The position numbers were made by a program, and so were the translations under genes. Positions 8,724-36,073 of a stretch of 64,000 bases of DNA are shown here, piece by piece. The notes under the pieces were generated by a model, which worked only from the letters and a program-made list of their open reading frames with translations, was not told the DNA's origin and did no database searches. The DNA lies in the NCBI RefSeq assembly GCF_037076465.1, contig NZ_AP028908.1, positions 3,782,001 to 3,846,000 of the forward strand, given 5' to 3'. How positions within the stretch are numbered: the stretch's first letter is position 1; each line of letters opens with the position of its first letter. This stretch comes from Pectobacterium araliae (GTDB lineage Bacteria; Pseudomonadota; Gammaproteobacteria; Enterobacterales; Enterobacteriaceae).

Positions 8724-9179
8724 CGAGTATCGGTGTCCTAATCACGGTTAATCATGTTCAGCCCTTCATGCTGCCAGTTATGCAGCACTACTACGGCTTC
8801 GGCTGACTGCTGCACGTTCATCCCGTCGCCTCTCGACGCTCGGTAGCCCTGAAGCAAACGTGCAGCCCTCCCGGGGTAATTCGCGCGACCTTCCTGCTTA
8901 TGCCTGTCAGCTTTACGTCACAGCGTTCTGTGCAAGTATTGGGCTTTGATGATATTTGCCACCTTACCCCGCTGTGCCGCCTAAACTGCTTCCTGTTCGT
9001 CAGGCCAGCATTTTGCCTTCAGCTTCCTTCAGATCCCACCTCGCGGTGGGCACCCTTGCCGTTCGGCTAACACTTCCCCTTGCCGGGTGTGTAGAGGACT
9101 TTCACCGCCAAGTCGCCCCTTGACCACTACAGTCAACGGACAGCGCCCGTCAAGGCGCTACGCGCCATGCCCGGCGCAC

Positions 9180-17275: not shown

Positions 17276-17351
17276 GGCCCCTTAGCTCAGTGGTTAGAGC
17301 AGGCGACTCATAATCGCTTGGTCGCTGGTTCAAGTCCAGCAGGGGCCACCA
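17276..17351 (+). tRNA. ileX: tRNA-Ile2 (CAU anticodon)
   Basis: 76 nt including the encoded CCA. Acceptor GGCCCCT pairs with AGGGGCC, the D-arm is TTAGCTCAGTGGTTAGAGC, and the T-arm is GCTGGTTCAAGTCCAGC. The anticodon is CAU in CTCATAA. Sequence and position next to mug match E. coli ileX, whose C34 is converted to lysidine to read AUA, so this is not a methionine tRNA. Its 3' 46 nt are the attachment core of the island. Confidence 0.96.
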
Positions 17352-17353
17352 AA
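17306..17353 (+). repeat. attL, 48-bp direct repeat
   Basis: The 48 bp from ACTCATAATC through the tRNA CCA and two further A residues recur exactly at 36026-36073. The copy here completes a functional ileX, so it is the tRNA-side junction. It marks site-specific integration by the tyrosine recombinase at 34416-35843. Confidence 0.96.
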
Positions 17354-18413: not shown

Positions 18414-18995
18414 CTAATTATCTTCGGCCAGAACATAAAGCATTGAAGGGACCACCTCACGTATCGCCGTTGTCTCTGTTTCATCACTCATCAGCATCAG
18501 TGTGTAATCCCGGCACTCAAATACCACGTCAGCATTGGATAGCCCAAAGGCTCCACCAGCAATAATCTCCCCAACCTCACACGCTGGCGTTTCGACGATA
18601 GACAGGCGATAGCCGCCAAACGTTACTGGCGGGTTATCAGGGCCTTCACTTAAATAGAGGCCTACAGCCTTAGCAGACAGTGCAGCACGTTCATGCCCAT
18701 CCATGCCAACCGCCTGACCAACACAATCCGCCAGGTGCCGCTTAATCTCAGTGACGCTCATTTCTACCAGATCGTTACCTGCTTTTTTCTTCTTTCTGGC
18801 CAGCACAGACTTGCTCTTGGCGTTCTGTGCTCGTGGATCATGACTGTCACGATACCGAGACAGATAAGCGTCACAAGCATCCGAATCAACCTTACCGCTA
18901 ACCCGCACAGGAAAGCCCGTTTTGCTCTCCCAGTTGTAGAATGCTCGGCGACTCATCCCGGCATGTTCAGCGTACTGGCTTACTGACATCAACAT
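18414..18995 (-). CDS. HTH protein, possibly Nu1-like small terminase
   Basis: 193 aa. The N-terminal 55 residues (SVSQYAEHAGMSRRAFYNWE then GFPVRVSGKVDSDACDAYL) look like the winged-helix DNA-binding domain of Nu1-type small terminase subunits or excisionase-like regulators. A basic segment (KSKSVLARKKKKAG) follows, then an acidic domain I do not recognise. The location beside the tail-like module fits a packaging role, because satellites often bring their own small terminase, but the family assignment is tentative. Two ATGs are usable, at 18995 or 18989. Confidence 0.45.
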   Translation of the reverse strand: MLMSVSQYAEHAGMSRRAFYNWESKTGFPVRVSGKVDSDACDAYLSRYRDSHDPRAQNAKSKSVLARKKKKAGNDLVEMSVTEIKRHLADCVGQAVGMDGHERAALSAKAVGLYLSEGPDNPPVTFGGYRLSIVETPACEVGEIIAGGAFGLSNADVVFECRDYTLMLMSDETETTAIREVVPSMLYVLAEDN

Positions 18996-19020
18996 AAAAA
19001 TATTCTCTCTGACAGGCAGA

Positions 19021-19178
19021 GTGTGAACCCTTCACACTTGTGCACACTAACATCTGCGAAGGGTTCACACTTTTTAATGAAAAGTGTGAATCAAACTGTG
19101 AAGCAAATACTGTTCTATTTCCTCGCTACGCCTTGCCACCAAGTACTTGTAACAATCCCTCAACAAAACTGTGAAGTG
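19021..19178. repeat. Cluster of GTGTGAA inverted and direct repeats
   Basis: GTGTGAACCCTTC (19021-19033) pairs with GAAGGGTTCACAC (19058-19070). TTCACACTTTT (19064-19074) also pairs with AAAAGTGTGAA downstream, so two mutually exclusive hairpins share one arm. More GTGAA-type copies continue to about 19190. It lies between the Nu1-like and tail-like genes; an operator, switchable leader or origin-like site is possible. Confidence 0.6.
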
Positions 19179-19305
19179 TAAAGTGTGAATCAAATTCAAA
19201 AGTTGATAGCTAGTGAAACAACGCGGCTCGCAATGCCCGTGCTTTACAAAAGTGCCAGGAAGGACCCATTTTTTTCTAGATGATAACCGTTGTCATTTGT
19301 TGCCA

Positions 19306-19950
19306 TCATTTCGCCGTCCTCATCGCTTCCGCTATCGCTTTACTCAACTCACCCGGCATCAATGCTGCCGCCATCGTGTTAGCTCTGTCCATGTAACCTA
19401 GGGTTGGGTTGACTTGCAGCGCGTCACCAAAACGAATCAACAGCTTTGGCGCTGGCATCTTCTGTCGAGAACGACGAGAACCATTTTGTGATCGCTTCAG
19501 CCGTTTTTTCCCTTTCTTTGTCTTCTTCGCCTTCCTGCGCTGCCATACACCGTTTACGCCACCGACCTCGCCAACAAACACATCTGGCTTGGCTTTCAGT
19601 TGCGACATCTTGTTACGCGTCAGGTTGCCGTGTTTGTTCAGCTTAATGTTTTTGGGATTGAGCAATGCCTGACTATTCAGCTTATGAACACCACCGAATT
19701 CAAATGGCTCTAAATAGCTGGCAGCAATATCGCGAACAAACACTCTGGCTTTTAAATTGTTTCTATTAGCCCCCACAGACCCTAGCGAATTGACTGTAAA
19801 CGGGGTAGGGTTTTCCAGATTCCGTTGAAATGCTGTTTTTTGCGACGCCTGAATTTTTCGTGCAACACTCGTCAATGCCTGAGCCGTGGCGAATGGAATC
19901 TGTTTCTTTATTCTTTGCAGTTGAGCCGATAACTCTTTCAAGCCAGACAT
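19306..19950 (-). CDS. Phage-like minor structural protein (unrecognised family)
   Basis: 214 aa, strongly basic in its C-terminal half (WQRRKAKKTKKGKKRLKRSQ). The N-terminal part (LKELSAQLQRIKKQIPFATAQALTSVA) resembles the start of small phage tail-completion or neck proteins that begin with an amphipathic helix. It follows the tape-measure gene by 53 bp. I can support only a phage-associated label from context and general appearance. Confidence 0.45.
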   Translation of the reverse strand: MSGLKELSAQLQRIKKQIPFATAQALTSVARKIQASQKTAFQRNLENPTPFTVNSLGSVGANRNNLKARVFVRDIAASYLEPFEFGGVHKLNSQALLNPKNIKLNKHGNLTRNKMSQLKAKPDVFVGEVGGVNGVWQRRKAKKTKKGKKRLKRSQNGSRRSRQKMPAPKLLIRFGDALQVNPTLGYMDRANTMAAALMPGELSKAIAEAMRTAK

Positions 19951-20003
19951 ATCACCACCTAAAAGTAATTAAATTTCGTCATTACCCATAATGATTTATG
20001 TAT

Positions 20004-21770
20004 TTACGAAAATTGCAGCGGTGTTGTTATTCTCCCGCCATTACCACTGGATAACGTTCGCCGTTCTCCTGTTTTGTTATCAATCATTGATATTTCGATC
20101 TGCATTGGGCCATCTTGCAAAGTTTGATTAAGTGTAGATAGCGCTGAGATCAAATCCTTACTGGCATCAGCAACATCACTATTACCTTGAGAGGACTGAT
20201 TACTGAATATTAATGATGAATTTCGGTTAACGCTGCCATCCATTTCCAAATCACCATCTTGTTGATAGAAATATGATGGCAAGCCCGGCATTGTTTTATG
20301 CAGATAATCTCTGGTTTCCTTTGGCGCACGCCCCAAGCCATAATCACGAACCCGCCCAGGTCCCCAGTTATATGCGGCAAGGGCCTTCTTCACATCGCCA
20401 TCGAACATTTTGAGTAAATCTGACAAGTAGCGTGCTGCGGCCTCACTCGATTTGTGAAAATCCATTCGATCACCTGACGAATTAAGCCCATAATCTCTGC
20501 CAGTAGCTGGCATAAACTGGAATGGGCCTTGAGCGCCTTTGGGCGATAACAGATTTTTTCCACGAGAAGATTCAGCATCCCACACATTATCAAGAATACC
20601 TGAAGGGAGTTTGTGTTTAGCTTCCAACGTTGAAAGATGTTTTTGTTCTGGTGTATTTCCTAGCGCTCTATCTGTTGGGTTAATTATCTTTTCATGTTGA
20701 GACTGCCAACTTTCAGAATATTTACGGTTTAACTTGTCCTGTAAAACATCCCCAGGCCTACCGAGCGCTAATTCAAGCCCTTCTTTGAATGTTAAGGAGT
20801 TCTTAAACTCCTCATCACGTCGTGCTCGATGTAAAATATCCTGTTGCTTATCACCATGATAAAAATTATTTTCACTGTCTTTTTCGTACTTTTTACTTTC
20901 CTTTAGTGCTTTTGCTGCGGGTGATTCACCACTTCCGCCAAGTAAAGCCTGAGACTTGAGGATTAACCCATCAAACCGAGCACCTATTTGGTTAAGTTGC
21001 TGCTTGAACGCTACGGCGTTCTGGATTTCTTTATCACTAAGAATTAGCCCATCACGCTGCGCCTGATCTTTAAGTCGTTTAACCTCATCCGTTGAATTTC
21101 TCATCAAACTCAGCAAATCTGGAGATAACCCAAGCTTATTGGCATATAGTGCCTGAAGACCTGGCGGCATGGATTGCATCACTCGGTTCAGATCATCAAC
21201 TAGCCTCCCAACATCAGCTAGCCCCTCTTTTGTTTTATGTATGTCAATGCCCATTTGCATCAAATTTGACTTAAAAGCGTTGTTACCCCCCCATAAGCCA
21301 TCAGTTGCTTTTGTGAATAAATCGTTTATTGCCGATTCAGAAGCCTCCCGAGCGCTACCGTTTTCAATCATAGCTCCGGTAAGTTCCTGAAAGGCATGAG
21401 CCGTCATGCTGACATTCTTTGCAGTGGTATCAATGCGGTAACCGTAATCTGCAAACTCTTTCAGGTTATTTTTAACAACATTGATAACCGTGGCAGCGCC
21501 ACCCAGCCCAAGTGTTAACCCCCCCACCATTTTCAGCGGGGGAACCAGATCGCCAACAAACTGGACACTATCTTTGGCGTATCGAGATAAATTCTCGAAT
21601 TTTCCACCAAGTTCATCAATCTCCTGACGCGAATCATCCCCGCCTAGCTTCAGCTTGTCTCGCGCATTATCCAAGACGGGCTCTAACTTCCGCACAGCCT
21701 CTTCAATTCGAGCTATGGAGGCACTAGCCTGTTCATTAGCTGTTAGCTCAAAATCAAATGAATTACTCAC
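20004..21770 (-). CDS. Tape-measure-like protein with lytic transglycosylase domain
   Basis: 588 aa. The N-terminal half is helical and coiled-coil prone (residues about 10-75 and 180-270) with a hydrophobic segment at about 76-99, as in tail tape-measure proteins. Residues about 382-480 form an SLT-type transglycosylase domain: catalytic Glu400 in VWDAESSRG, GAQGPFQFMPATGRDYG, and AYNWGPGRV. Such proteins set tail length and open peptidoglycan at DNA entry. The start abuts the stop of the upstream gene. The protein is short for a siphophage tape measure, so a short tail or an injection device is possible. Confidence 0.75.
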   Translation of the reverse strand: MSNSFDFELTANEQASASIARIEEAVRKLEPVLDNARDKLKLGGDDSRQEIDELGGKFENLSRYAKDSVQFVGDLVPPLKMVGGLTLGLGGAATVINVVKNNLKEFADYGYRIDTTAKNVSMTAHAFQELTGAMIENGSAREASESAINDLFTKATDGLWGGNNAFKSNLMQMGIDIHKTKEGLADVGRLVDDLNRVMQSMPPGLQALYANKLGLSPDLLSLMRNSTDEVKRLKDQAQRDGLILSDKEIQNAVAFKQQLNQIGARFDGLILKSQALLGGSGESPAAKALKESKKYEKDSENNFYHGDKQQDILHRARRDEEFKNSLTFKEGLELALGRPGDVLQDKLNRKYSESWQSQHEKIINPTDRALGNTPEQKHLSTLEAKHKLPSGILDNVWDAESSRGKNLLSPKGAQGPFQFMPATGRDYGLNSSGDRMDFHKSSEAAARYLSDLLKMFDGDVKKALAAYNWGPGRVRDYGLGRAPKETRDYLHKTMPGLPSYFYQQDGDLEMDGSVNRNSSLIFSNQSSQGNSDVADASKDLISALSTLNQTLQDGPMQIEISMIDNKTGERRTLSSGNGGRITTPLQFS

Positions 21771-22205
21771 TCATATCCCCAATCTCAAAGTAGATATTGA
21801 AATAAAATCTTCAGCGGTGAGTGGCTCGACGCATTTCTCCAATGCCACCAGCGCAGCGTTAAAACCAGCACTATATCCATTGGCATCATTATTCAGCGAA
21901 CTGTAAATAAACGCCGCCATATTACGATCTTCCGTATCCAGACATTCCCAGCCAGGATAAGCCGCAATCATTTTACGTTTGGTGTAATGGCTAAGGTGCC
22001 GATGGCTTACTGACAGAATATCGATTGCCTGCTGATAGGGCTTACCCCGTTTAATCAGCTTGAGTGCAAATATGGGGTTACTTTTTGCTTCTTGGCTAAC
22101 CGCTATCCAATGTGCATTGGAATGCTGTGATTGCCTCTCCTGTTCAGCGGCTAGGCCGCTATCCTGTACCCCAAGATTTAAATGGCTGAACGTTCTCATA
22201 AGCAC
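21771..22205 (-). CDS. Unknown protein, paralogue A
   Basis: 144 aa. Residues about 27-135 align colinearly with residues about 38-147 of the next gene upstream: QHS.AH, EAK.NPI.A..L.K, a W-containing middle, D.NG.SA..N.A..AL and EPLT..... It lies directly before the tape-measure gene, where tail-assembly chaperones normally sit, but I see no slippery frameshift site and no family match, so that role is only a positional guess. Confidence 0.6.
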   Translation of the reverse strand: MLMRTFSHLNLGVQDSGLAAEQERQSQHSNAHWIAVSQEAKSNPIFALKLIKRGKPYQQAIDILSVSHRHLSHYTKRKMIAAYPGWECLDTEDRNMAAFIYSSLNNDANGYSAGFNAALVALEKCVEPLTAEDFISISTLRLGI

Positions 22206-22213
22206 TCATCCAG

Positions 22214-22927
22214 TTAACGAGGCGGCATATCAATGATCGGCAATCCTGCATCCAGTCGAGATTTAATCTTTGCAGCTTCATTCACTGGATTGGCGGCTTT
22301 ACCGCTGACTAACCGACTGTCTCCAGGCAAAACAGCACCCGTTGCGCGGAATTGCTGATTGCGACGTGCGGCGGCTTGAGCCAGCGTCTCTTTGTACTCT
22401 TCATCGGCCTTACGGCGTGCATTAAGGTTGTCTATCGAGTTAGGATCGGAATCATTTATCATTTGGGTGGAGCGTGCTGCCAGCGCCTGAAGCTCATCAT
22501 CAGTCAAAGGCTCTTCCATTTTCTTCAACGCTTTTGTGGCACTGTTACGGGCTGCGCTAAAACCGTTTTTATCACCGTTCTGGACAGAGTAAGTCAGCGC
22601 TGTCCGTGCCTTTTCTTCATCGTCCTGAAATTCCCAGGTGGGATCGTTCTCTTCCATAAATTTTTGGGTAAATACGGATAATCCCTGCGGTGAAGATACC
22701 AGCTTCGCCTTGATTTTCTTGGATGACAATTCAGTCTCTTTCAGCAGGCGAATAGCAAGGATAGGGTTTTCCTTGGCTTCATCAGAAATAGCGACATTAT
22801 GTTCACGGCTATGCTGACTGGGACGAGCAACCTTAATCGGCTCTTTTTCATCGGCAGATTGAATAACATCATTGCTGTTTGAGCTTTTGGCTTTGGAACC
22901 GCCAAAAAGATGTGAAAAATCAAGCAT
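22214..22927 (-). CDS. Unknown protein, paralogue B
   Basis: 237 aa from ATG 22927 (MLDFSHLFGGSKAKS), preferred over the longer frame because AAAGGAAA precedes it at a good distance. It contains the same domain as its neighbour (residues about 38-147) plus a C-terminal extension rich in Ala, Arg and Gln (DNLNARRKADEEYKETLAQ...). No signal peptide or membrane segment. The function is unknown; the gene order suggests an early step in particle assembly. Confidence 0.6.
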   Translation of the reverse strand: MLDFSHLFGGSKAKSSNSNDVIQSADEKEPIKVARPSQHSREHNVAISDEAKENPILAIRLLKETELSSKKIKAKLVSSPQGLSVFTQKFMEENDPTWEFQDDEEKARTALTYSVQNGDKNGFSAARNSATKALKKMEEPLTDDELQALAARSTQMINDSDPNSIDNLNARRKADEEYKETLAQAAARRNQQFRATGAVLPGDSRLVSGKAANPVNEAAKIKSRLDAGLPIIDMPPR

Positions 22928-23014
22928 GGATATTTTTCCTTTAGAGACATGTTGACGGTCGTTAATGGCCTCTCTGAATTCGCCAAAAACCAAAAAATTA
23001 GAAGCGCTGTGCCG

Positions 23015-24285: not shown

Positions 24286-25317
24286 CTACACCCTTGCCTT
24301 TCCCGGTGCATTTCCAGGGAAAGGCGAAGCAGCCTCCATGAACTGGGCTACGTTCTGCAATAACTGCCACATGTAATGACAGTGATGATTTCGTGTTACC
24401 GTTTCATGCAACTTATGCCAGAGCCCTTCTATTCTGTTCAGCCAGGGCGAGTAAGTCGGCAAAAACAGCAGGTTGAACTTCGGATTCTCTGCCAGCCAGC
24501 GCTGGGTTTCCTTACTTTTATGAATGATGTAGTTATCTACTATCAGTGTGATAATGCTGGCGTGCCGGTATGTGCGTTTCAGTTTAACCAACAGATTTAT
24601 AAACAATTTTGATGTCTTCTTTATTCCGCCTATATAGGTCACCTTTCCTGTGTCCGCGTGCAGTGCGCCAGCCAGATAATGTTTCTGATTCTGGCCCGGC
24701 GTCACTATCCGTTTTTGGTTACCTTTCTGGCTCCAGTCAGCGCCGATTTTCGGGTTGAGGGCAATATCAACCTCATCCTGATAAAACACGGGATGTTCCG
24801 AACTGTTGACAGCCAGCGCGGCCTGAATAGCGGTCATTTTTTCATCGTAATCTGGGTCGGAGAGCTTCAGTGTGGGGGCAGCCCGACGCCAGACAAGACC
24901 GGCCATCTTAACCCAGCGATACAGGGTACTTCGTGAGGCATTAATGTTGAAAAAACCATTTATCTCCATGGTCAGCAATTCCAGACTCCAGCGCGAGCGT
25001 AGCCATCCGACATCCTGTGGCGAGTAATCAACCAGATGAGATAGCAGCGGCAATACAGGCTCTGGCGACCATTTCGGCGGTCGTCCTGCGGGTCGGCTTT
25101 CCAGTCCTTCGGCGCCACTTTGGGTAAACCAGTTTATCCAGCGTCCGACGGTGGAACGAGCAGCCTGAAGGTGTTTAGCCACATCGGAAACGGAGATGCC
25201 ATCATCAAGCATTAGTAGAGCGGCAAGCCTGCGATAATGGTTCTTGTCGCGTGTCGTCTGCATGGTTTTCTGCATCAATTGACGCTCGTCGGGTTGGATA
25301 GGTGTTATGATCGGCAT
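24286..25317 (-). CDS. IS630-family transposase
   Basis: 343-aa DDE transposase. The N-terminal HTH region (DGISVSDVAKHLQAARSTVGRWI) is followed by the catalytic motifs YQDEVDI (first Asp), LIVDNYIIHKS (second Asp) and PTYSPWLNRIEGLW (Glu). The frame is complete. I could not define the terminal inverted repeats or the expected TA target duplication with confidence. Confidence 0.9.
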   Translation of the reverse strand: MPIITPIQPDERQLMQKTMQTTRDKNHYRRLAALLMLDDGISVSDVAKHLQAARSTVGRWINWFTQSGAEGLESRPAGRPPKWSPEPVLPLLSHLVDYSPQDVGWLRSRWSLELLTMEINGFFNINASRSTLYRWVKMAGLVWRRAAPTLKLSDPDYDEKMTAIQAALAVNSSEHPVFYQDEVDIALNPKIGADWSQKGNQKRIVTPGQNQKHYLAGALHADTGKVTYIGGIKKTSKLFINLLVKLKRTYRHASIITLIVDNYIIHKSKETQRWLAENPKFNLLFLPTYSPWLNRIEGLWHKLHETVTRNHHCHYMWQLLQNVAQFMEAASPFPGNAPGKARV

Positions 25318-25471
25318 GACTCAGTCCGGTTGGTGATTTGGGATATTCAGCGATTGATCAGATCGCTCAACTTGGACTGAGTTCCCCCCCAAGTGATGTG
25401 ATGGACGTCCCTCCTCAACATAATCCTGCCACACTTATGTTGAGCCGTCCCATTTATAGAGGAACAACATC

Positions 25472-26506
25472 ATGAACACGATAAAAGTCGTCGGTATCGA
25501 TCTGGCTAAATCCGTTTTTCAGCTTTGTGTCTGGATGAATGATGGGACCGTTGCCTGGAATCGAAAAGTTTCTCGCAGCAAGCTGTTAGATACTGTTCGT
25601 CAATTCCCGCCGGATACACTTATCGCAATGGAAGCTTGTGCAACCTCGCATTACTGGGGGCGGACTTTCCAATCCATGGGATACGCCATCCGGCTCATTC
25701 CAACCCAACATGTAAAGGCGTTAACTCGTCATCAGAAAAATGATGCCAATGATGCTCTAGCAATATGTGAGACGGCATTTCGTCCGGGGATTCACTTTGT
25801 TGCTGTAAAAACTCTTGAGCAGCAAGATATCAAAGCGCTGCGTTGTGCCCGTCAGTTGATGGTCGAACAGCGCACCGCCGCCGCCAATCAAATTCGTGCT
25901 CTGGCCGCTGAGCAGGGCTTCGAGTTCCCGGTTGGGATACACACTTTGCAACAGCGATTACCCGATTTGATTGAAGATGCGGAAAAGCCTGTGTCTCCGG
26001 TATTACGCCATTTGCTTTCCACTTTATTGGAAAACATCCACACACTGAATGAATATATTCGTTCAACAGAATATGAAATCGCAGCATTGTGTCAACAGCA
26101 ACCCCGGTATCGAGCACTGATGACTATACCGGGTGTTGGCCCGCTCATCGCCGCCGCTTTTTTAAGTGAGGTTGATGCAGAACAATTTGCTAACGGAAGA
26201 CAACTTTCCGCCTGGTGTGGTCTGGTTCCCCGGCAACATAGTTCCGGCGGGAAACACATCCTCACTTCGATGACTAAAAATGGTAACTGCGACCTTCGGA
26301 CACTCATCATTCATGGAGCCAGAGCGGTCATGCGCTGTGCCCAAAAGCGGGATGACCGTCTTGGAAGATGGCTTAATCATGTCACTGAGCGACGGGGAAA
26401 AATGAAAGCCACCGTGGCGCTGGCAAATAAGTTAACACGTATTGTCTGGCGGTTGCTGTCTGAACCGGTTGATTTCAATATGGATAAGGCATTTGCGATG
26501 AAGTAA
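25472..26506 (+). CDS. IS110/IS1111-type transposase
   Basis: 344-aa RuvC-like DEDD transposase. The N-terminal domain has VGIDLAKSVFQLCVW, IAMEACATSHYWG and KNDANDALAICEA-type motif (KNDANDALAICET). The C-terminal transposase_20 region has IPGVGPLIAAAFLSEV, LSAWCGLVP and RQHSSGGKHILTSM, with the conserved serine. IS110 enzymes work with a bridge RNA from the element's non-coding end. ATG follows AGAGGAACAACATC. Confidence 0.93.
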   Translation: MNTIKVVGIDLAKSVFQLCVWMNDGTVAWNRKVSRSKLLDTVRQFPPDTLIAMEACATSHYWGRTFQSMGYAIRLIPTQHVKALTRHQKNDANDALAICETAFRPGIHFVAVKTLEQQDIKALRCARQLMVEQRTAAANQIRALAAEQGFEFPVGIHTLQQRLPDLIEDAEKPVSPVLRHLLSTLLENIHTLNEYIRSTEYEIAALCQQQPRYRALMTIPGVGPLIAAAFLSEVDAEQFANGRQLSAWCGLVPRQHSSGGKHILTSMTKNGNCDLRTLIIHGARAVMRCAQKRDDRLGRWLNHVTERRGKMKATVALANKLTRIVWRLLSEPVDFNMDKAFAMK

Positions 26507-26865: not shown

Positions 26866-27336
26866 CTAAAAAATAAACTTACCAGCGTCTTTATAGCCCA
26901 AAGGCTTTGCTTTAGGCAGCTTCATAAGGGCATCTAAGTTAGATTGCCGGACATAGATATCGAAAATTCTATCACCATGTACCCCCATAATATATTTCCC
27001 CGTTTTTCTTTCTATCCAACAACTGGCATGTACCCCAATAAAGGCTTTCACTTTTGATTTTTTAGCCACTGGCTTTGCTGACAGATAGCGCTCATCTTTT
27101 TGCTGAGGGTGCTTCTCATGGTTATAATCCCACCAAACTGAAAATCGTAACTCATCACATCCAATGTCAGCCCAATTAATTACAGTTGGTTTGCCATCAA
27201 TTTCGCAAAGTATGTACTCATGCTTTTGGTTATGATCTTCATGAGAAACACCGTTTAAATCAATTTTGTTTTGCCGTATCGCCTCGTTCAGTGCGGTAAC
27301 AAGTAAATTTAATAGAGCTTCACGTTTGCTTAACAT
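26866..27336 (-). CDS. Hypothetical protein
   Basis: 156 aa, MLSKREALLNLLVTALNEAI... . Mixed alpha/beta character with tryptophan- and charge-rich central part (CDELRFSVWWDYNHEKHPQQ). No recognised domain. It lies immediately beyond the iteron array, downstream of the helicase gene, so it may belong to the replication module. Confidence 0.6.
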   Translation of the reverse strand: MLSKREALLNLLVTALNEAIRQNKIDLNGVSHEDHNQKHEYILCEIDGKPTVINWADIGCDELRFSVWWDYNHEKHPQQKDERYLSAKPVAKKSKVKAFIGVHASCWIERKTGKYIMGVHGDRIFDIYVRQSNLDALMKLPKAKPLGYKDAGKFIF

Positions 27337-27416: not shown

Positions 27417-27694
27417 GTGGGTTACGTGGGTTATTGGGTTATCTTCGCTTGCTAAGTATTTTTTATTCCATACATTCAATAAGTTAACTTTTAATCAACA
27501 CAGAAAAGTAACCCACTCAGCCCCTCAAATAACCCACTCAAGCGTTTTTCAGGTGGGTTACGATTTTCACAGTGGGTTATTTTGCCCTGTTAGTGGGTTA
27601 TAAATAGCCTTTTGTGGGTTACGAGTGGGTTATAGCATTCCTTTAAAATCAGCACGTTAAATAACTTTTCTATCACGTAACCCACATAACCCAC
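27417..27694. repeat. GTGGGTTA iteron array, candidate replication origin
   Basis: Eleven exact copies of GTGGGTTA and one near copy (TTGGGTTA, 27434). Plus-strand copies start at 27417, 27426, 27553, 27572, 27593, 27614 and 27625; minus-strand copies (TAACCCAC) start at 27509, 27530, 27678 and 27687. Many are 19-21 or 9-11 bp apart, near whole helical turns. AT-rich DNA (27442-27508) separates the groups. It directly follows the DUF927 helicase gene, so an origin or copy-control region is the best reading. Confidence 0.8.
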
Positions 27695-27721
27695 CTCTAT
27701 AAGCCTCACCTGTATAAAAAA

Positions 27722-29854
27722 TTACTCATCATCAGGAGAGAACATCAGCACATAAAACACATGCTGCTTACCTCCCATCTTGCGGAGTGCTTTTTTCTTG
27801 TGCCGCCCCTTATCCCCGGTCTCAAGCATCCCGGCACTGGCTAAAGCTCTGGCAAATTGCGTATGGTTAAAGCCACTCGCTATTTCCCGCTCAAATGCAG
27901 CAGGAAAGGTGTAAAATTTGTAAACCTCATCCCCGGATGGGTTTCCAGTCCGGTAGCCTGCCAGCTCTTTGATCGGCAAATCCCGTGCATCGGTTTCAGG
28001 GTAGGGAAGGTAACGACTGAAACCATAGGCATTAAGAAACGCCTCACACTGCTCGATGATCTGCTGGTGTTCCTTGTTACCCGTCCCGAACTCTTTCACC
28101 CAGGCGTTAAAGCTATGCTGGATGGCATCACGGCTGGCCTGTTCACTCCATCCGGTGATCGGCACACCAGCTACCAGCGCCGCTTCAAGGATTGCAAAGC
28201 GTTCGGCCACGCGGTGTACCTGCTCACCATAATCGGCCGGAATAAGACCACGCCAGCGCGTCTGCGCGTCACGTACCGCCTGTTTTGCCTCCTGCTGGTG
28301 AGCCGCCAGCCATTTAACCCACTCACGCCCCGCCGCCCCGTGGTTATCAATCCAGGATTCTTTCAGTGCGTCAGCATGAGCCTTGCCGTTCGGGAGACCG
28401 TTAAAGACCGTCGATTTCTCCATAGGGATGTTCAACAAGCGTACCAGTTGCCCTGCCTTAACTTTTAGCCCACCAGCAGCAAGGAAGGTTTCAATGTCCA
28501 TTTCCCCGGTACTGATCGCCACAGTGCGCCAGCGTTTCAGTTCCCGATTACCGCCCTCCTTGGCCCCCTGTAACTTTCCGGCACCGTTAAACAGAGTGTA
28601 AGCAGACGTGGCAACATCTTTGGCACTGCTGCCTTGCCCCACCTCATCAAGCGGTAACAGACTGTCGTTATGTGCTTCCGCTTCGTTGGCTATGCCAAGC
28701 GCAGTCCCATACCAGGTAAGCCGCAGGGCATCCGGTTCCCCCCACAGGCTGCTCGCAATATTGGCCGTGGTAGTCTTACCAGCACTCGATTGTTCGAACA
28801 AATGGACACCGAAACCATCAGCCCCCACCAGCCCGATAAGCGGGGCAGATAATGCAGCCGCCACGCCCAACATCATTGAAGGGTTTCCTCCGGCCAGACG
28901 TGCGACGGAATCCCGCCAACTGGCGGTTGTACCAGCAATGGCATACCCGAAAGATGCCGCACTGCGACCATTAAAGAGAATAGGCATCTCTGGATCGCCA
29001 ATCACTTCACCATCGGGCATGATGTATGCACCATGATGCCAGCCCGTAGTATGGGTAATAATCCATTCCCGATCAGCACCACTTTGCTGCAACCAGTCAG
29101 CCAAGATTGCCCGAAAGGTACTTTTGGTGGTGACATTCACCCCGCCAGCCTTGAGGGAGCGCCAGCCGTCACGCTCTCCAATATCAGCACAGGGGATCGC
29201 TCTGGTAATATCTTCGTGGCCACGCGGCGAACGCCAGCGCAAAACAAGATAACGCTCTGCACCATCACTACCAGAACCCACGACCTCAAGGGGCGAACAC
29301 AACCACGTTTCGTTATTGATGATCTCGCCGCTGTCCTTGTCCACCTTTGGCGTGATCCAGTACAAGCCATCGTTACGGCTCTCTACACGGGGTTTCAGTT
29401 CATCACCTGGTTCGGGCTTCGGTTCCCGTTTCTTCACAGGAAGATTTATCACAATACTTTCCCCACGCTCTGCCTCTTCCCTGAGCCGTGGAAGTATGTC
29501 CGTCCAGTTCTCCTTTGGCTGGGGTTCAAACATGCTGTTAAACAGGCTGGCTTCTTTCACATCTGATAGCGCCAGTTTCGTTGCAATAGTGCTTATCTGA
29601 GTTTCGGACAGATCACCAGCGCGGATCACACGAACGTAATGACGGCCTCTATCAACAATGTTGAGTCTTTCCAGCTCCGCCAACTGCGATTTACCCAGAT
29701 ATACGGGTGGTATATCATCACCCGCCCTTTTCCCTTCACTCTCGATCCAGTGCTGAGCATGTGAATAGGCATCTTCACCCGCAAAGATAATCGCCTCGGT
29801 AAATTTATCTTTCGGCAGAAATTTAATATTCGGGGCATTTTTCATCTTCATCAT
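27722..29854 (-). CDS. DUF927 domain replicative helicase-like protein
   Basis: 710 aa. The C-terminal two thirds match the DUF927 family of phage and satellite replication ATPases: Walker A EQSSAGKTT (355-362, Lys360) and Walker B LLPLDEVGQ (399-407, Asp403-Glu404), then GNRELKRWRTVAISTGE. The N-terminal 150 residues are unassigned, and no zinc finger or TOPRIM primase motif is visible. Usually such proteins unwind DNA at the element's own origin. It overlaps the upstream gene by 4 bp and is followed by the iteron array. Confidence 0.85.
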   Translation of the reverse strand: MMKMKNAPNIKFLPKDKFTEAIIFAGEDAYSHAQHWIESEGKRAGDDIPPVYLGKSQLAELERLNIVDRGRHYVRVIRAGDLSETQISTIATKLALSDVKEASLFNSMFEPQPKENWTDILPRLREEAERGESIVINLPVKKREPKPEPGDELKPRVESRNDGLYWITPKVDKDSGEIINNETWLCSPLEVVGSGSDGAERYLVLRWRSPRGHEDITRAIPCADIGERDGWRSLKAGGVNVTTKSTFRAILADWLQQSGADREWIITHTTGWHHGAYIMPDGEVIGDPEMPILFNGRSAASFGYAIAGTTASWRDSVARLAGGNPSMMLGVAAALSAPLIGLVGADGFGVHLFEQSSAGKTTTANIASSLWGEPDALRLTWYGTALGIANEAEAHNDSLLPLDEVGQGSSAKDVATSAYTLFNGAGKLQGAKEGGNRELKRWRTVAISTGEMDIETFLAAGGLKVKAGQLVRLLNIPMEKSTVFNGLPNGKAHADALKESWIDNHGAAGREWVKWLAAHQQEAKQAVRDAQTRWRGLIPADYGEQVHRVAERFAILEAALVAGVPITGWSEQASRDAIQHSFNAWVKEFGTGNKEHQQIIEQCEAFLNAYGFSRYLPYPETDARDLPIKELAGYRTGNPSGDEVYKFYTFPAAFEREIASGFNHTQFARALASAGMLETGDKGRHKKKALRKMGGKQHVFYVLMFSPDDE

Positions 29855-30186
29855 TGCAACTTTCCCACCATCTGGAACTTGCCGATCAACGGGTGGAACC
29901 AGTATTTACTGCCGTATTTACGTTTGGCGCCCTTAATAACGATCAGAGCCGCTTTACGGAATTTCTCTTCATGCACGATGTAGCCATTGCCCTGCTTCAC
30001 AATCATTACGCCACTGTTACGCGCCAGTTCCTCCGCCTTACTGGTGGATAACCCCATTTCAGCCGCCAGCGTCGTTAGCGGAGCCATACCATCCGGTACG
30101 TTGCCTTTTTGCTGCATCGCTGCAAGGGCAAGCTCCAGCGCTTCTACGCGCTTCACCAATCCGTTAAACGTTACTTGGCTGATCAT
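29851..30186 (-). CDS. Hypothetical small protein
   Basis: 111 aa from ATG 30186 (MISQVTFNGLVKRVEALELA). A coiled coil at the start, then a stretch like a helix-turn-helix (TLAAEMGLSTSKAEELARNSG). Overlaps DUF4222 by 23 bp and the helicase start by 4 bp, so translation is coupled to replication gene expression. Function unknown; a helicase partner or regulator is possible. Confidence 0.6.
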   Translation of the reverse strand: MISQVTFNGLVKRVEALELALAAMQQKGNVPDGMAPLTTLAAEMGLSTSKAEELARNSGVMIVKQGNGYIVHEEKFRKAALIVIKGAKRKYGSKYWFHPLIGKFQMVGKLQ

Positions 30187-32660: not shown

Positions 32661-32690
32661 GCGGCCCGGCATGGCCGCTTTTGTTTTATT
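32661..32690 (+). terminator. Terminator of the short plus-strand operon
   Basis: GCGGCC (32661-32666), loop CGGCAT, GGCCGC (32673-32678), then TTTTGTTTTATTT. It separates the RHH operon from the convergent AntA gene. Confidence 0.75.
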
Positions 32691-33492
32691 TAGCATCAGA
32701 TACCTCCAGCAGGCGTTTAGCCAGCCAGCGCTGAGCCAGTTCAGTTAATTTCGCCTTGCGGGTAATCGTCGGAGTATCCAAATCCAACAACGCACAATCA
32801 CGATTTCCCAAATAAGCCAATAACGCCAGTTGGTCAGCGTTCATGTGGTCACGCACCTGCTTAATTGCGATACCCTTCTGTTTCGCCCAGGTTCGCGGGT
32901 GTAAGCCCAGCACAAGGTCATTCAGGAACAAACTTTCATTGCTGTAGGCAAAGCCGTGCTGCTTGTCTCCTGTGCGCTCGATGTAGCCTTTCATCGCATC
33001 GGCCATGCTTTTGTGGTCTTCACAGGCTGCTACGCGATTCTTTCGCCAGTTCAGCAGGGCAGATTGGTGTTCCTCTGGCGCTACACGGCGTAAACGTTCT
33101 TCACAGTCGATGAAATACTGACGGGCCAACTTTCCCTGATCGTTACGTTCGACCATCGAAAGCTCTTTCGCCATATTCAGGCTGAGAATGTAATCGTGTT
33201 CGATGCGCTGGCGAGATTTTGAGCTCGCCCGTTTTGGCGAGGTCAAATTCTCAACAATTACATAATCAACCCCTTCAACAAATCCGTATTGCTTGATTCG
33301 GCCTTTAATCCAGTTAGTGAAGTCACGCCCAACTTTTAAAAACTCATGAAGTTTTCGCCCACGAACTGACTGAATTTCTTTACCGTTAATACTGCCATCA
33401 GTAACAGGAAGCAGTTCCGAAAAATTAATAGATTCCTGATTTTCAGCGTAACTAATCTCCTGACCGGTTACGGCCATATTTTTAGTTTTCAT
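32686..33492 (-). CDS. AntA/AntB-type antirepressor
   Basis: 268 aa. Residues about 32-110 form the AntA domain: GSINGKEIQSVRGRKLHEFL, then VGRDFTNWIKGRIKQYGFVE, then the GVDYVI and RIEHDYILSLNMAKELSMVE stretches. The C-terminal part (150-268) is a second domain, as in phage antirepressors that pair AntA with a variable tail. Antirepressors relieve a repressor during induction; here it may answer a helper phage or the SOS state. Flanked by an AlpA-like regulator. Confidence 0.85.
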   Translation of the reverse strand: MKTKNMAVTGQEISYAENQESINFSELLPVTDGSINGKEIQSVRGRKLHEFLKVGRDFTNWIKGRIKQYGFVEGVDYVIVENLTSPKRASSKSRQRIEHDYILSLNMAKELSMVERNDQGKLARQYFIDCEERLRRVAPEEHQSALLNWRKNRVAACEDHKSMADAMKGYIERTGDKQHGFAYSNESLFLNDLVLGLHPRTWAKQKGIAIKQVRDHMNADQLALLAYLGNRDCALLDLDTPTITRKAKLTELAQRWLAKRLLEVSDAK

Positions 33493-33500
33493 ACATCACC

Positions 33501-33698
33501 TCACAATGTTTGTGTTTGACGTACAGAAACCAAGTAAGCATCCAAATCTGATTTGTGATAGATAACTTTTTTCTTACCTACCTTGTAGAACGGGATACAC
33601 TCACGACCAGAACAAGCCCAGTTAGCTAAAGTCTGAGGACTGACACCGATATATTCGGCAGCTTCTTTGCGGGTAAGGCGGGATTTGACTATTTGCAT
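33501..33698 (-). CDS. AlpA/excisionase-like HTH regulator
   Basis: 65 aa from ATG 33698 (MQIVKSRLTRKEAAEYIGVS). Classic HTH_17 pattern: LTRKEAAEYIGVSPQTLANW, then a wing ending in VIYHKSDLDAYL. Such proteins act as excisionases or activate integrase in P4-like islands. A frame to 33710 exists with four more residues. It is followed by the AntA gene after 8 bp. Confidence 0.75.
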   Translation of the reverse strand: MQIVKSRLTRKEAAEYIGVSPQTLANWACSGRECIPFYKVGKKKVIYHKSDLDAYLVSVRQTQTL

Positions 33699-33822
33699 TG
33701 GTATCACCATGTATTACGGGTTAACGATGGTGATAAATATGAATTGATAGATAGCTATCAGATAGACGATGAGCTCGTTATTATATGATTAAAACGCGCT
33801 CTTATGGTATAAAAGCGCGCTA

Positions 33823-34416
33823 TTAGGTAATAACTAAATTAAAAGGAGGAGAAGGCCTAACCTTTTCATGTTGTCCTAACTCATTATCCTTTATCCACTT
33901 TTGTAAACTTTGTCGACTAACTTCCTCATTGAAATGTGAATGCAACTTTTCTACCATCCCGTTTTTGCTTGCATTCGGATATTTTCCCCATGTATCCCGC
34001 ATGATTTTTATAGCGTCATCATAATGACGATGTCGTGGCCCCTGAGCATTGGAACGATTTTTTTCTGAAATTCGATTATTAGTCTCATCGTTAACCACTG
34101 CACCCAACACAACTGGTTCAATTCCTCTATATAAATCATACCGTGCCGTCGCTTTCCTTAATGCAAATGCGGAATTTTCCAGACCCAATACTTCAAGCAT
34201 GGCAATAGCAACCATTAACGCTTTTACGTCATCAGTAGGAATATCCGTCATTAATTTATCGTAATTATCGTCGTTTCCCCTTACGTATTTTATTTTCTCT
34301 TCATCAGAAGTAAATTGCTCTACTTTATAGAACCATTTGTTAGTTGCTGCATTAGTTGCTCTTGAATCCAGATCCAAAATTATTTGTTTTCTTTGTTCTT
34401 CTGTTAGGTTGGTCAT
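33823..34416 (-). CDS. Hypothetical protein downstream of integrase
   Basis: 197 aa, MTNLTEEQRKQIILDLDSRA... . The C-terminal part (YDDAIKIMRDTWGKYPNASK, then SRQSLQKWIKDN) looks like a transcriptional-regulator HTH. Its first 20 residues resemble the last 20 of the integrase (see findings). Start overlaps the integrase stop by 1 bp, so the two are coupled. Confidence 0.6.
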   Translation of the reverse strand: MTNLTEEQRKQIILDLDSRATNAATNKWFYKVEQFTSDEEKIKYVRGNDDNYDKLMTDIPTDDVKALMVAIAMLEVLGLENSAFALRKATARYDLYRGIEPVVLGAVVNDETNNRISEKNRSNAQGPRHRHYDDAIKIMRDTWGKYPNASKNGMVEKLHSHFNEEVSRQSLQKWIKDNELGQHEKVRPSPPFNLVIT

Positions 34417-35843
34417 TATTTTGAAATCATCCCATATCTATTTGTCAATTCAAAAATTAGTTGGCGTTTTTCTTCGTCACTTAATGGAACCAGCGCCATC
34501 ATTAAATTCGCGTCTATTCCTTTTTTACGTTCCACCAGCCCTGCATGCTCTAAAATGGCATGTTCTATTTTCTTCGCGGGCTCTTGCAATTCATCGGCCC
34601 CAAAATGCAAATATCCTTGTGTTACGTCAGCGCTACGCATGGTGCGATGATTCATGAGCCGCTTAAGAATATATGAGCCAACACCCGCCAGCTCTGCCAC
34701 TGTGCCAAAGGTTCTACGGGCATCGTGGCACCTGAATTCGATAGCCGGTAGGTTATCCAGATTCGGTTCTGGCACCGTTGCCGCTACAATACGAGCAATC
34801 ACCCTGCGCGGTTCCTGAATTACCCCACCACTTCGCCCAGGAAAAACCTGTATATCTTTTTCTCCCTTTGTTCTGAGACGACGCCGAAATATTTTTAGCA
34901 AGGTTTCGGTTATGGGCAACTCCAAAGGGTCGCCGTTCTTAGTGGTATCAATCCAAAAATAACGACCTCCCATATTTACCCTGTCCCAGGTAAGCCCAAA
35001 AACCTCAGAGCGACGTAGCCCAGTAAATAAGGCCGTGTCTATCGCATCACACATAGCCACAGCAACATCATCCCTTGTTTCTTCTGCCCTAACTCTGACA
35101 AGATCAACAGCTTTTAACCACCGCCCCAAATCGTGAGTACGGATGCGATCTGTTTTTCTCGTCGTTCCGTGCCACTGGCGTTTAGTGCTCAGTACCATCG
35201 TAGGCGGATCGGGAAGCAACGTTTTCCCTTCTTCATCCCGGTAATGGTCATACGAAAAACGGTAGACAGCGCGTAATGCTCGCGCCCATAAATCAGCTTG
35301 TGCGGTACTTCCAGAACCAACACCAGAACGTAGAGTGCTTTTGTCCACTCCAAACCACACCGAGCCTTCAGTAATTGCCTTATGGCGGTTCTCCACCCTG
35401 TCACGGCTGATATTCGCCATCGGTTGTTTCATCCAATCGCCAGAGAAATTATTGAGGATTGCCCGGTACTGATGCTCAGTCGCTTTTTTAAGTCGGTGCC
35501 CCCGATTCTGTACATAAGTATTAAGAGCGTCTTCTAATGTCACTGAACTCTTGGCTTTTACTCGCTTTATATCGTTTGGATTTCTGCCGCTGGTCGCCAC
35601 CTCGCCAAGCAGCTCTAACGCTTTTGCTCTGGCACTATCGATAGATAAATCAGGGAAGCGTCCCAACGTAGCCCGAATGAACTTGCCCTCGCGTTTACGC
35701 GCTATGCAAAAGCTCTTCACGCCCGTAGCACCAACACGCAATATCAACCCATTCACTACGGTATCCCTGAACTCAAGCCGTGCACCGTCTGGGCTAGGAG
35801 CTAATGCAGATATTCCTGCTTTCGTAAATTTGAAGGATTTCAT
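34416..35843 (-). CDS. P4-type tyrosine integrase
   Basis: 475-aa site-specific recombinase. N-terminal DUF4102-like arm-binding domain (1-95), core-binding domain (about 100-215) and catalytic domain with Arg277 (TGLRRSEVFGL), Lys302, His373-x-x-Arg376 (HDARRTFGT), His399 (LMNHR) and nucleophile Tyr411 (VTQGYLH). All catalytic residues are present. It lies 183 bp from attR and reads away from it. It should catalyse integration at ileX. Confidence 0.95.
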   Translation of the reverse strand: MKSFKFTKAGISALAPSPDGARLEFRDTVVNGLILRVGATGVKSFCIARKREGKFIRATLGRFPDLSIDSARAKALELLGEVATSGRNPNDIKRVKAKSSVTLEDALNTYVQNRGHRLKKATEHQYRAILNNFSGDWMKQPMANISRDRVENRHKAITEGSVWFGVDKSTLRSGVGSGSTAQADLWARALRAVYRFSYDHYRDEEGKTLLPDPPTMVLSTKRQWHGTTRKTDRIRTHDLGRWLKAVDLVRVRAEETRDDVAVAMCDAIDTALFTGLRRSEVFGLTWDRVNMGGRYFWIDTTKNGDPLELPITETLLKIFRRRLRTKGEKDIQVFPGRSGGVIQEPRRVIARIVAATVPEPNLDNLPAIEFRCHDARRTFGTVAELAGVGSYILKRLMNHRTMRSADVTQGYLHFGADELQEPAKKIEHAILEHAGLVERKKGIDANLMMALVPLSDEEKRQLIFELTNRYGMISK

Positions 35844-36025: not shown

Positions 36026-36073
36026 ACTCATAATCGCTTGGTCGCTGGTTCAAGTCCAGCAGGGGCCACCAAA
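36026..36073 (+). repeat. attR, 48-bp direct repeat (3' ileX fragment)
   Basis: Exact copy of attL. Only the anticodon arm to CCA part of the tRNA is present, so this is not a functional tRNA gene but the displaced 3' end of the original ileX. Confidence 0.96.

What the first reader, a model, noticed from the sequence alone, without database searches (positions are those of the whole stretch)
27417..27694. Array of eleven GTGGGTTA iterons behind a DUF927 helicase: candidate origin
Eleven exact 8-mers and one near copy lie in 280 bp, seven on one strand and four on the other. Most are spaced by about one or two helical turns, with an AT-rich core at 27442-27508. By chance one 8-mer on either strand would be expected far less than once in this length. 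In P4 the crr region next to the alpha gene and the ori carry iterons bound by alpha; here the same place behind the helicase gene is filled by an unrelated motif. The protein that would bind it may be the helicase N-terminus (no known domain) or the 111-aa HTH-like protein.
Basis: partly seen in the sequence, partly recalled or inferred. Interest (0 to 1): 0.82.

Follow-up and report, generated by a model that had tools for sequence, protein, structure and literature searches.

The report
Satellite origin with swappable recognition cassette
The repeats are very probably the replication origin of an integrated phage-satellite-like island, read by the tail end of the helicase encoded next door; this kind of origin is known, but relatives show that origin and reading domain are exchanged together as one cassette.

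Summary
Confirmed: 11 exact GTGGGTTA, 7 on + and 4 on -, at 27417-27694, plus TTGGGTTA at 27434. They lie just 3' of an intact DUF927 helicase gene (27722-29854, -) in an 18.8-kb island bounded by 48-nt repeats of a tRNA 3' end.

Most relatives have an array there: in 116 of 127 loci the 400 bp after the helicase stop hold strictly the most-repeated 8-mer of the locus. The layout is largely kept while the letters change.

Repeat class follows the last ~100 residues of the helicase, not its N-terminus or the 111-aa neighbour. The C-terminal tree needs 10 class changes, the minimum; the ATPase tree needs 20. L056 and L058 are 95-100% identical in DNA, then 33-63% over the final ~100 codons plus array, then 92-100% again. 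The C-terminal fold best matches SaPIbov1 Rep.

Verdict: a SaPI/PICI-type rep-ori replicon, a new member of a known kind; the natural joint exchange of reader and origin is the less expected part. Binding and replication were not tested. In a further 60 stretches, 17 had no array.

The parts
27417..27694 (.). iteron array, candidate replication origin (11 GTGGGTTA + 1 near copy)
   Evidence: arrays at the same place in relatives
27553..27694 (-). origin module 1 in rep orientation: iterons 27687, 27678 | AT-rich 27633-27677 | inverted iterons 27625, 27614, 27593, 27572, 27553
   Evidence: a first module alone in the 'single' origins
27417..27537 (-). origin module 2 in rep orientation: iterons 27530, 27509 | AT-rich 27442-27508 | inverted 27434 (near copy), 27426, 27417
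27442..27508 (.). AT-rich core (73.1% AT), candidate melting site
27722..29854 (-). rep: 710-aa DUF927 protein, Cch / SaPIbov1 Rep-like helicase and replication initiator
27722..28054 (-). C-terminal domain of rep (about residues 601-710), winged-helix-like, inferred to read the iterons
29426..29854 (-). N-terminal module of rep (residues 1-143), 46% identical to the N-terminus of the otherwise different D5-type Rep of EcCICFT073
34416..35843 (-). tyrosine integrase of the island (475 aa)
33501..33710 (-). AlpA-like / excisionase-like HTH protein (69 aa; HTH_17)
   Evidence: tblastn kin in 10 fetched loci
32686..33492 (-). AntA-type antirepressor-like protein (268 aa)
17306..17353 (+). left attachment repeat, 3' end of a tRNA gene (anticodon cat)
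36026..36073 (+). right attachment repeat (48 of 48 identical)
18414..18995 (-). terminase-small-subunit-like protein of the island
   Evidence: phrog_57, E 6.8e-9

Best explanation
The array is the origin of replication of an integrated, satellite-like island (PICI type). The 710-aa Rep, an MCM-like DUF927 helicase, binds the GTGGGTTA iterons through its C-terminal winged-helix-like domain, assembles on the inward-facing iteron sets, melts the AT-rich stretch between them and loads itself as replicative helicase on the excised circle. Shown here by comparison: a repeat array 3' of rep in most relatives; largely conserved spacing and orientation with changing letters; close association of repeat word with the C-terminal domain; exchange of the two as one block of roughly 600 bp. 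Inferred: binding, melting, helicase loading and replication.
For: The 400 bp after the rep stop hold strictly the richest 8-mer cluster in 116 of 127 loci. Orientation and spacing are similar across classes (21 loci mapped). Trees on 72 dereplicated rows, 11 classes: 10 class changes for the C-terminal domain (least possible), 20 for the ATPase core; 89 rows, 14 classes: 15 (least possible 13) against 25. Block exchange: L056 against L058, L060, L070; L085/L112, L101/L111, L082/L014, L076/L078. C-terminal identity, median, in pairs with cores at least 95% identical: 0.96 if same class (60 pairs), 0.39 if different (42 pairs; pairs are not independent). C-terminal model pLDDT 78.5, pTM 0.76; top PDB match SaPIbov1 Rep 8tch, probability 1.00, E 3.1e-3. 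Pfam HTH_56 'Cch helix turn helix domain' in 33 of 87 members at E up to 1, best 2.3e-7. Whole Rep: the four best fold matches are Cch and SaPIbov1 Rep, E 1.9e-10 to 8.9e-9. Nine further DUF927 records (eight plasmid records, six of them circular, and SaPI PT1028) each have a cluster of 5-13 copies of an 8-mer just past the gene. [quoted passage not shown] a Gram-negative PICI rep-ori segment maintains a plasmid in E. coli DH5alpha (PMC6092414, passages).
Against: No binding or replication experiment was possible. The Gram-negative replicon tested in PMC6092414, EcCICFT073, has a different helicase type (D5_N/Pox_D5; DUF927 only at E 0.15) and GGTAGACA/GGTAGATA repeats, so it is not a direct test of this one. 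C-terminal domain and array are adjacent, so linkage alone would give some association. In 11 of 127 loci the cluster was not strictly the richest, and 17 of 60 further stretches had fewer than four copies of any 8-mer; among these, L227, L239, L270, L275 and L276 have C-termini that look like those of array-bearing relatives, so some Reps lack a recognisable array there. HTH_56 is below Pfam's cut-off for the window protein (16.7 against 26.2 bits). No C-terminal PDB fold match reached E 0.001, a PDB sequence search with the C-terminal alignment found no relevant chain, and the same region in the full-length model was below pLDDT 50. TTATCCCA repeats also occur with C-termini (L145, L148) whose closest relatives outside their own group are of other classes at 37-40% identity.
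Confidence: 0.86

Rival explanations
1. The repeats are an operator array: a regulator (the 111-aa neighbour, the AlpA-like protein or the antirepressor) binds them to control genes downstream of rep.
For: The array lies between rep and the next ORF on the same strand (26866-27336), and phage regulators can bind repeated operators (established knowledge).
Against: The 111/139-aa protein is detected in 8 of 72 dereplicated relatives, and close kin of the AlpA-like protein in 10 fetched loci (more divergent AlpA-like proteins would be missed), while arrays are far commoner. In L056/L058 the repeat word changed while the surrounding DNA stayed 92-100% identical apart from the C-terminal block. 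W and L056 share rep and array but little else of the island.
Confidence: 0.05
2. An origin, but read by the Rep N-terminus or by a host initiator, with the C-terminal domain merely linked to the array.
For: Domain and array are neighbours, so recombination can carry them together without functional coupling. The N-terminus is a separate module also found on another helicase type.
Against: The word changes while the N-terminus stays (L056/L058), and relatives without this N-terminus have arrays of the same word (N-terminus in 17 of 42 GTTGGTTCA rows). In L056/L058 the flank beyond the array does not change with the word. One chromosome holds two such loci with different words (GTGGGTTA and GTCGGTTC), which a shared host reader would not explain easily.
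Confidence: 0.05
3. A partition, incompatibility or copy-control site rather than the initiation site.
For: Iterons can serve partition or handcuffing in plasmids (established knowledge). 70 of 126 loci were scored as two-module and 56 as one-module, so one module may be auxiliary.
Against: Position, AT-rich stretches and inward-facing sets match published PICI and SaPI origins (PMC6092414). No partition-type match appeared among the 27 island ORFs scanned.
Confidence: 0.04

Closest known systems
SaPIbov1-type staphylococcal island replicon (Rep + 3' iteron origin)
   Same: Rep of the same family by sequence and fold (8tch); origin directly 3' of rep with iterons; C-terminal recognition domain (PMC7581432, passages).
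   Different: Different repeat word; Rep here carries an extra N-terminal module; Gram-negative host; many origins of this group were scored as two-module (70 of 126 loci).
Gram-negative PICI origins, e.g. EcCICFT073 (PMC6092414)
   Same: Same placement, iterons around an AT-rich stretch, integrase and small HTH regulator in the island; Rep N-terminal 141 residues 46% identical.
   Different: EcCICFT073 Rep has a D5-type helicase and Pox_D5-like C-terminus and GGTAGACA/GGTAGATA repeats. The iteron sequences in Fig. 2a of the paper were not visible to me, so GTGGGTTA may already be drawn there.
SCCmec Cch helicase (5dgk)
   Same: Best fold match of the whole Rep, E 1.9e-10; Pfam names HTH_56 after Cch; Cch contains DUF927 (PMC7581432, passages).
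   Different: SCC elements are not tRNA-integrated satellites (established knowledge); PMC7581432 says that an origin had not previously been identified for SCCs and examines a candidate for Cch2.
P4 satellite (alpha protein, ori, crr)
   Same: A satellite whose replication protein has a cognate origin; PMC6092414 lists this as shared with PICIs (passages).
   Different: Pfam finds only DUF927 in the window Rep. The P4 repeat word is recalled and was not compared.

Membership tests
SaPI/PICI-type rep-ori replicon | Rep helicase of the SaPIbov1/Cch family | tested here: met
   DUF927 E 4.3e-49; phmmer to 8tch E 1e-13; the four best Foldseek matches are Cch and SaPIbov1 Rep
SaPI/PICI-type rep-ori replicon | iteron sets flanking an AT-rich stretch immediately 3' of rep | tested here: met
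SaPI/PICI-type rep-ori replicon | Rep C-terminal domain recognises the iterons | tested here: inconclusive
   co-variation and block exchange agree; binding itself cannot be tested here
SaPI/PICI-type rep-ori replicon | rep-ori drives autonomous replication | not testable with these tools
   indirect only: circular records with DUF927 and array, which may be excised islands
Gram-negative PICI (element) | site-specific integrase and attachment repeats | tested here: met
Gram-negative PICI (element) | AlpA-like regulator | tested here: met
   HTH_17 protein at 33501-33710, 61.8% identical over 68 aa to a stretch of the E. coli island L008
Gram-negative PICI (element) | induction and packaging by a helper phage | not testable with these tools
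   none
capsid-forming PICI | own capsid and head genes | tested here: not met
   no capsid, portal or protease match among 27 island ORFs scanned (smaller overlapping ORFs not scanned); tail-type proteins and a terminase-small-subunit-like protein instead
P4-like satellite | alpha-type primase-helicase | tested here: not met
   Pfam finds only DUF927 at E up to 0.01

The most novel reading that the evidence does not exclude
Rep proteins of these elements are three-part mosaics: an N-terminal module, a helicase motor that can be of DUF927 or D5 type, and a C-terminal reader. Reader and origin move together as a specificity cassette of roughly 600 bp, with one edge in a conserved stretch near codon 608-612 of rep and the other just past the outer iterons. 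An element thereby switches replication specificity in one recombination event while its surroundings stay nearly identical. A conserved repeat scaffold filled with at least a dozen different words is a natural data set for a protein-DNA recognition code and may let several elements coexist in one cell as orthogonal replicons.
Probability: 0.6. Interest if true: 0.62.

Novelty: new member of a known kind. Interest (0 to 1): 0.5.

Why it matters
It says what the array most likely is and points at the right part of the protein to test. Across the family the repeat word changes inside a largely fixed layout together with one small domain, and near-identical elements with exchanged cassettes exist. 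That makes initiator-origin recognition in phage satellites directly testable with natural pairs. It also suggests how several such elements in one chromosome could keep their replication separate; the window's own genome holds two such loci with different words.

Tried and rejected
Rejected: Rep N-terminus or the 111/139-aa protein as reader. Rejected: 'two-module origins belong to satellites, one-module origins to full prophages'; contig lengths are mixed in both groups. Rejected: L152 as a long-distance transfer of a cassette; its core is 97% identical to L038 of the same class. Not settled: whether co-resident elements avoid sharing a word; 11 of 12 genomes with two callable arrays have different words and one (G298) the same, and no null was computed. 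The full-length model left residues 610-710 below pLDDT 50; a fragment with a more diverse alignment gave a usable model. A PDB sequence search with the C-terminal alignment gave two protein A chains (E 0.02 and 0.1, no single stretch significant), taken as chance.

Rows dropped before counts: L040 and L050 (contig ends before the stop) left 127 loci; L053 (internal stop) was dropped too, leaving 126 of 129 proteins. L017, L049, L052 and L054 were dropped for coverage, leaving 122, dereplicated to 72. L154 was dropped for a stop in the extended tree. L014 was labelled by hand GTTGTCCC because its copies read TTGTCCC. In the extended tree the classes of L145-L183 were set by hand from the top 8-mers. 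In the tree a row counted as labelled from three copies of its word upwards. Of the 60 stretches, 44 come from genomes with two or more matches (two fragments left out) and 16 are a selection from the rest, so they are no even sample; the counts 43 and 17 are my own from the printed table.

Literature: nine paper searches listed nothing that from title, abstract or passage describes exchange of reader plus origin. The library lacks most subscription papers, including the primary SaPI origin papers, which I know only through passages of PMC7581432 and PMC6092414 and from recall.

Full report
Observation. Eleven exact GTGGGTTA lie at 27417-27694, seven on + and four on -, and a near copy TTGGGTTA at 27434. 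The window has 15 against 1.21 expected. In the whole 4.66-Mb genome the word occurs 157 times against 112 for the word read backwards, so what is special is the cluster: two copies separated by 1-13 bases occur at seven places, all here.

Setting. The array is directly 3' of the 710-aa DUF927 gene (27722-29854, minus strand). The gene lies between identical 48-nt repeats at 17306-17353 and 36026-36073, the 3' end of a tRNA gene with anticodon cat. This 18.8-kb island carries an integrase, an HTH_17 (AlpA-like) protein and an AntA-type antirepressor, a terminase-small-subunit-like protein, a tape-measure-like protein and a minor-tail-type protein. Among 27 island ORFs scanned no capsid, portal or protease match was found. 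Two transposase-like genes at 24286-26506 lie downstream of the array and touch neither rep nor array. An island in an E. coli genome, L008, lies at a tRNA beside mug and rpoD and shares both attachment stretches of the window at 87-91% identity.

Relatives. They came from a collection of 84,980 species genomes (44 loci), IMG/VR (the best 80 of 161) and four E. coli genomes chosen from 39 with a match. Of 127 loci with a readable stop, 116 have strictly their richest 8-mer cluster in the 400 bp after it. The other eleven are L110, L116, L055, L121, L130, L017, L024, L033, L049, L054 and L053; four of them tie with or fall just below another place, and L017, L053 and L054 show no array. The words differ: GTGGGTTA, GCGGGTTA, ACGGGTTA, GTTGGTTCA, GTTGTCTC, GTTGTCCC, TTATCCCA, TTAGCCCA and others. 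The layout is largely the same in the 21 loci mapped: one or two copies pointing one way near position 25-45 after the stop, an AT-rich gap, then three to five pointing back at steps of about 11, 21 and 21 bp; L015, L078 and L014 deviate. By a simple rule, 70 of 126 loci have a second module of the same form and 56 do not.

A further set was less uniform. DUF927 was found in 90 of 392 genomes of the family. From these I took 60 stretches, 44 from genomes with two or more matches and 16 others. By my count 43 of 60 had at least four copies of an 8-mer within 450 bp after the stop and 17 did not. Some of the 17 are broken genes or other subfamilies, but L227, L239, L270, L275 and L276 have C-termini resembling those of array-bearing relatives. 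These are unexplained.

Which part reads the array. Against L058 (88.7% identical overall, GTTGGTTCA class) residues 121-600 of the window protein are 90-100% identical in blocks of 30, and residues 601-710 only 30-62%. Against L020, L074 and L012 (80-86% overall, GTGGGTTA class like the window) the last stretch stays 77-100%. On 72 dereplicated rows with 11 classes the C-terminal tree needs 10 changes of class, the least possible; the core tree needs 20. With 89 rows and 14 classes the numbers are 15 (least possible 13) and 25.

Cassette exchange. In 60-bp steps, L056 and L058 are 95-100% identical from 1380 to 300 bp before the rep stop, 33-63% from there to 300 bp after it, 73% in the next step and 92-100% for the rest of the 1.5 kb compared. 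L070 shows the same (92-100% on both sides). L060 recovers to 97-100% from 360 to 660 bp and then differs again over about 600 bp of other DNA. Other class pairs show such a block: L085/L112, L101/L111 and L082/L014, and, with flanks of about 77-92%, L076/L078. For L132/L081 identity falls from about 180 bp before the stop and does not recover, so that pair shows no bounded block. At a larger scale the window and L056 share 27419-29860 at 88.7% DNA identity and little else of the island: rep plus array is itself a module, and its edge falls at the outermost iteron.

Fold. The fragment 586-710 gives a model with pLDDT 78.5 and pTM 0.76. Its best PDB matches are SaPIbov1 Rep (8tch, probability 1.00, E 3.1e-3 and 1.1e-2), then a relaxosome accessory protein bound to oriT DNA (5vfx, E 0.07); none reaches E 0.001. 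Pfam HTH_56, the Cch helix-turn-helix domain, is matched by 33 of 87 members at E up to 1, and by the window protein below Pfam's cut-off. The whole model matches Cch and SaPIbov1 Rep best.

Natural replicons. Nine further records were scanned: eight plasmid records, six of them circular, and a stretch of SaPI PT1028. Each has a cluster of 5-13 copies of an 8-mer just past the DUF927 gene; in L139 and L142 it starts about 200 bp past it. In eight of nine this was the best place in the sequence scanned; in L137 an equal cluster of the same word lies near 8.3-8.8 kb. The 15,995-bp Klebsiella record carries integrase and head genes, so it may be an excised island rather than a stable plasmid.

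Two loci in one chromosome. The window's genome has a second DUF927 gene (G000:C1:1820591-1821424), 55.8% identical over residues 114-710 and followed by nine GAACCGAC (that is GTCGGTTC). Of 12 genomes with two callable arrays, 11 have different words and one the same; no null was computed, so this is not evidence of avoidance.

Literature. PMC6092414 (passages only) reports that Gram-negative PICI origins lie 3' of rep with two iteron sets around an AT-rich region, and that the EcCICFT073 segment maintains a plasmid in DH5alpha. I placed that island at about 1377930-1388654 of NC_004431 by its gene content; the identification is my inference. Its Rep is of D5_N/Pox_D5 type, followed by GGTAGACA/GGTAGATA repeats, and its clear similarity to the window Rep is confined to the N-terminal ~140 residues (46%). 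[quoted passage not shown]

Mechanism. Best supported: Rep assembles through its C-terminal domains on inward-facing iteron sets, the AT-rich stretch melts and the helicase loads. Shown here are the layout, the association of domain and word, and the family membership; the rest follows from the SaPI model. How priming occurs is open: Pfam finds no TOPRIM part in the window Rep, whereas some longer relatives are annotated with one, and its N-terminal module also occurs on a Rep of another helicase type.

Novelty. The origin is a new member of a known kind. I found no description of the joint exchange of reader and origin in nine searches (listed under Tried and rejected), but the primary SaPI origin papers are not in the library, and Figure 2a of PMC6092414, which shows iteron sequences, was not visible.

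Noticed in passing
window 18414-22993: The island carries tail-type proteins (minor tail phrog_1924; a 588-aa tape-measure-like protein with an SLT domain) and a terminase-small-subunit-like protein, but no capsid, portal or protease match among 27 ORFs scanned, unlike capsid-carrying relatives such as L010 and L136.
   Followed up: partly
window 29426-29854; L282 37242-38996: The N-terminal ~140 residues of Rep are 46% identical to those of a D5-type Rep (EcCICFT073), so one N-terminal module sits on two different helicases. Its function is unknown.
   Followed up: partly
G000:C1:1820591-1821424 (L188, L262): A second DUF927 locus in the same chromosome with a GTCGGTTC array; the same word leads in four other genomes of the genus or family, G151, G184, G241 and G308.
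   Followed up: partly
window 24286-26506: Two transposase-like genes lie side by side inside the island downstream of the origin (the names IS630-type and IS110-type are recalled).
   Followed up: no
L101, L103, L108 and others, after the array: In 51 of 126 loci a relative of the gene after the array in L101, which looks like a single-stranded-DNA-binding protein, lies within 1.2 kb of the rep stop.
   Followed up: partly
L137 about 8250-8800: A second cluster of the same GAACCAAC word lies away from rep in this 12-kb circular record.
   Followed up: no
L239, L270, L275, L276, L227 (after the rep stop): DUF927 genes whose C-termini resemble array-bearing ones but with no repeated word of four or more copies in the next 450 bp.
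   Followed up: no
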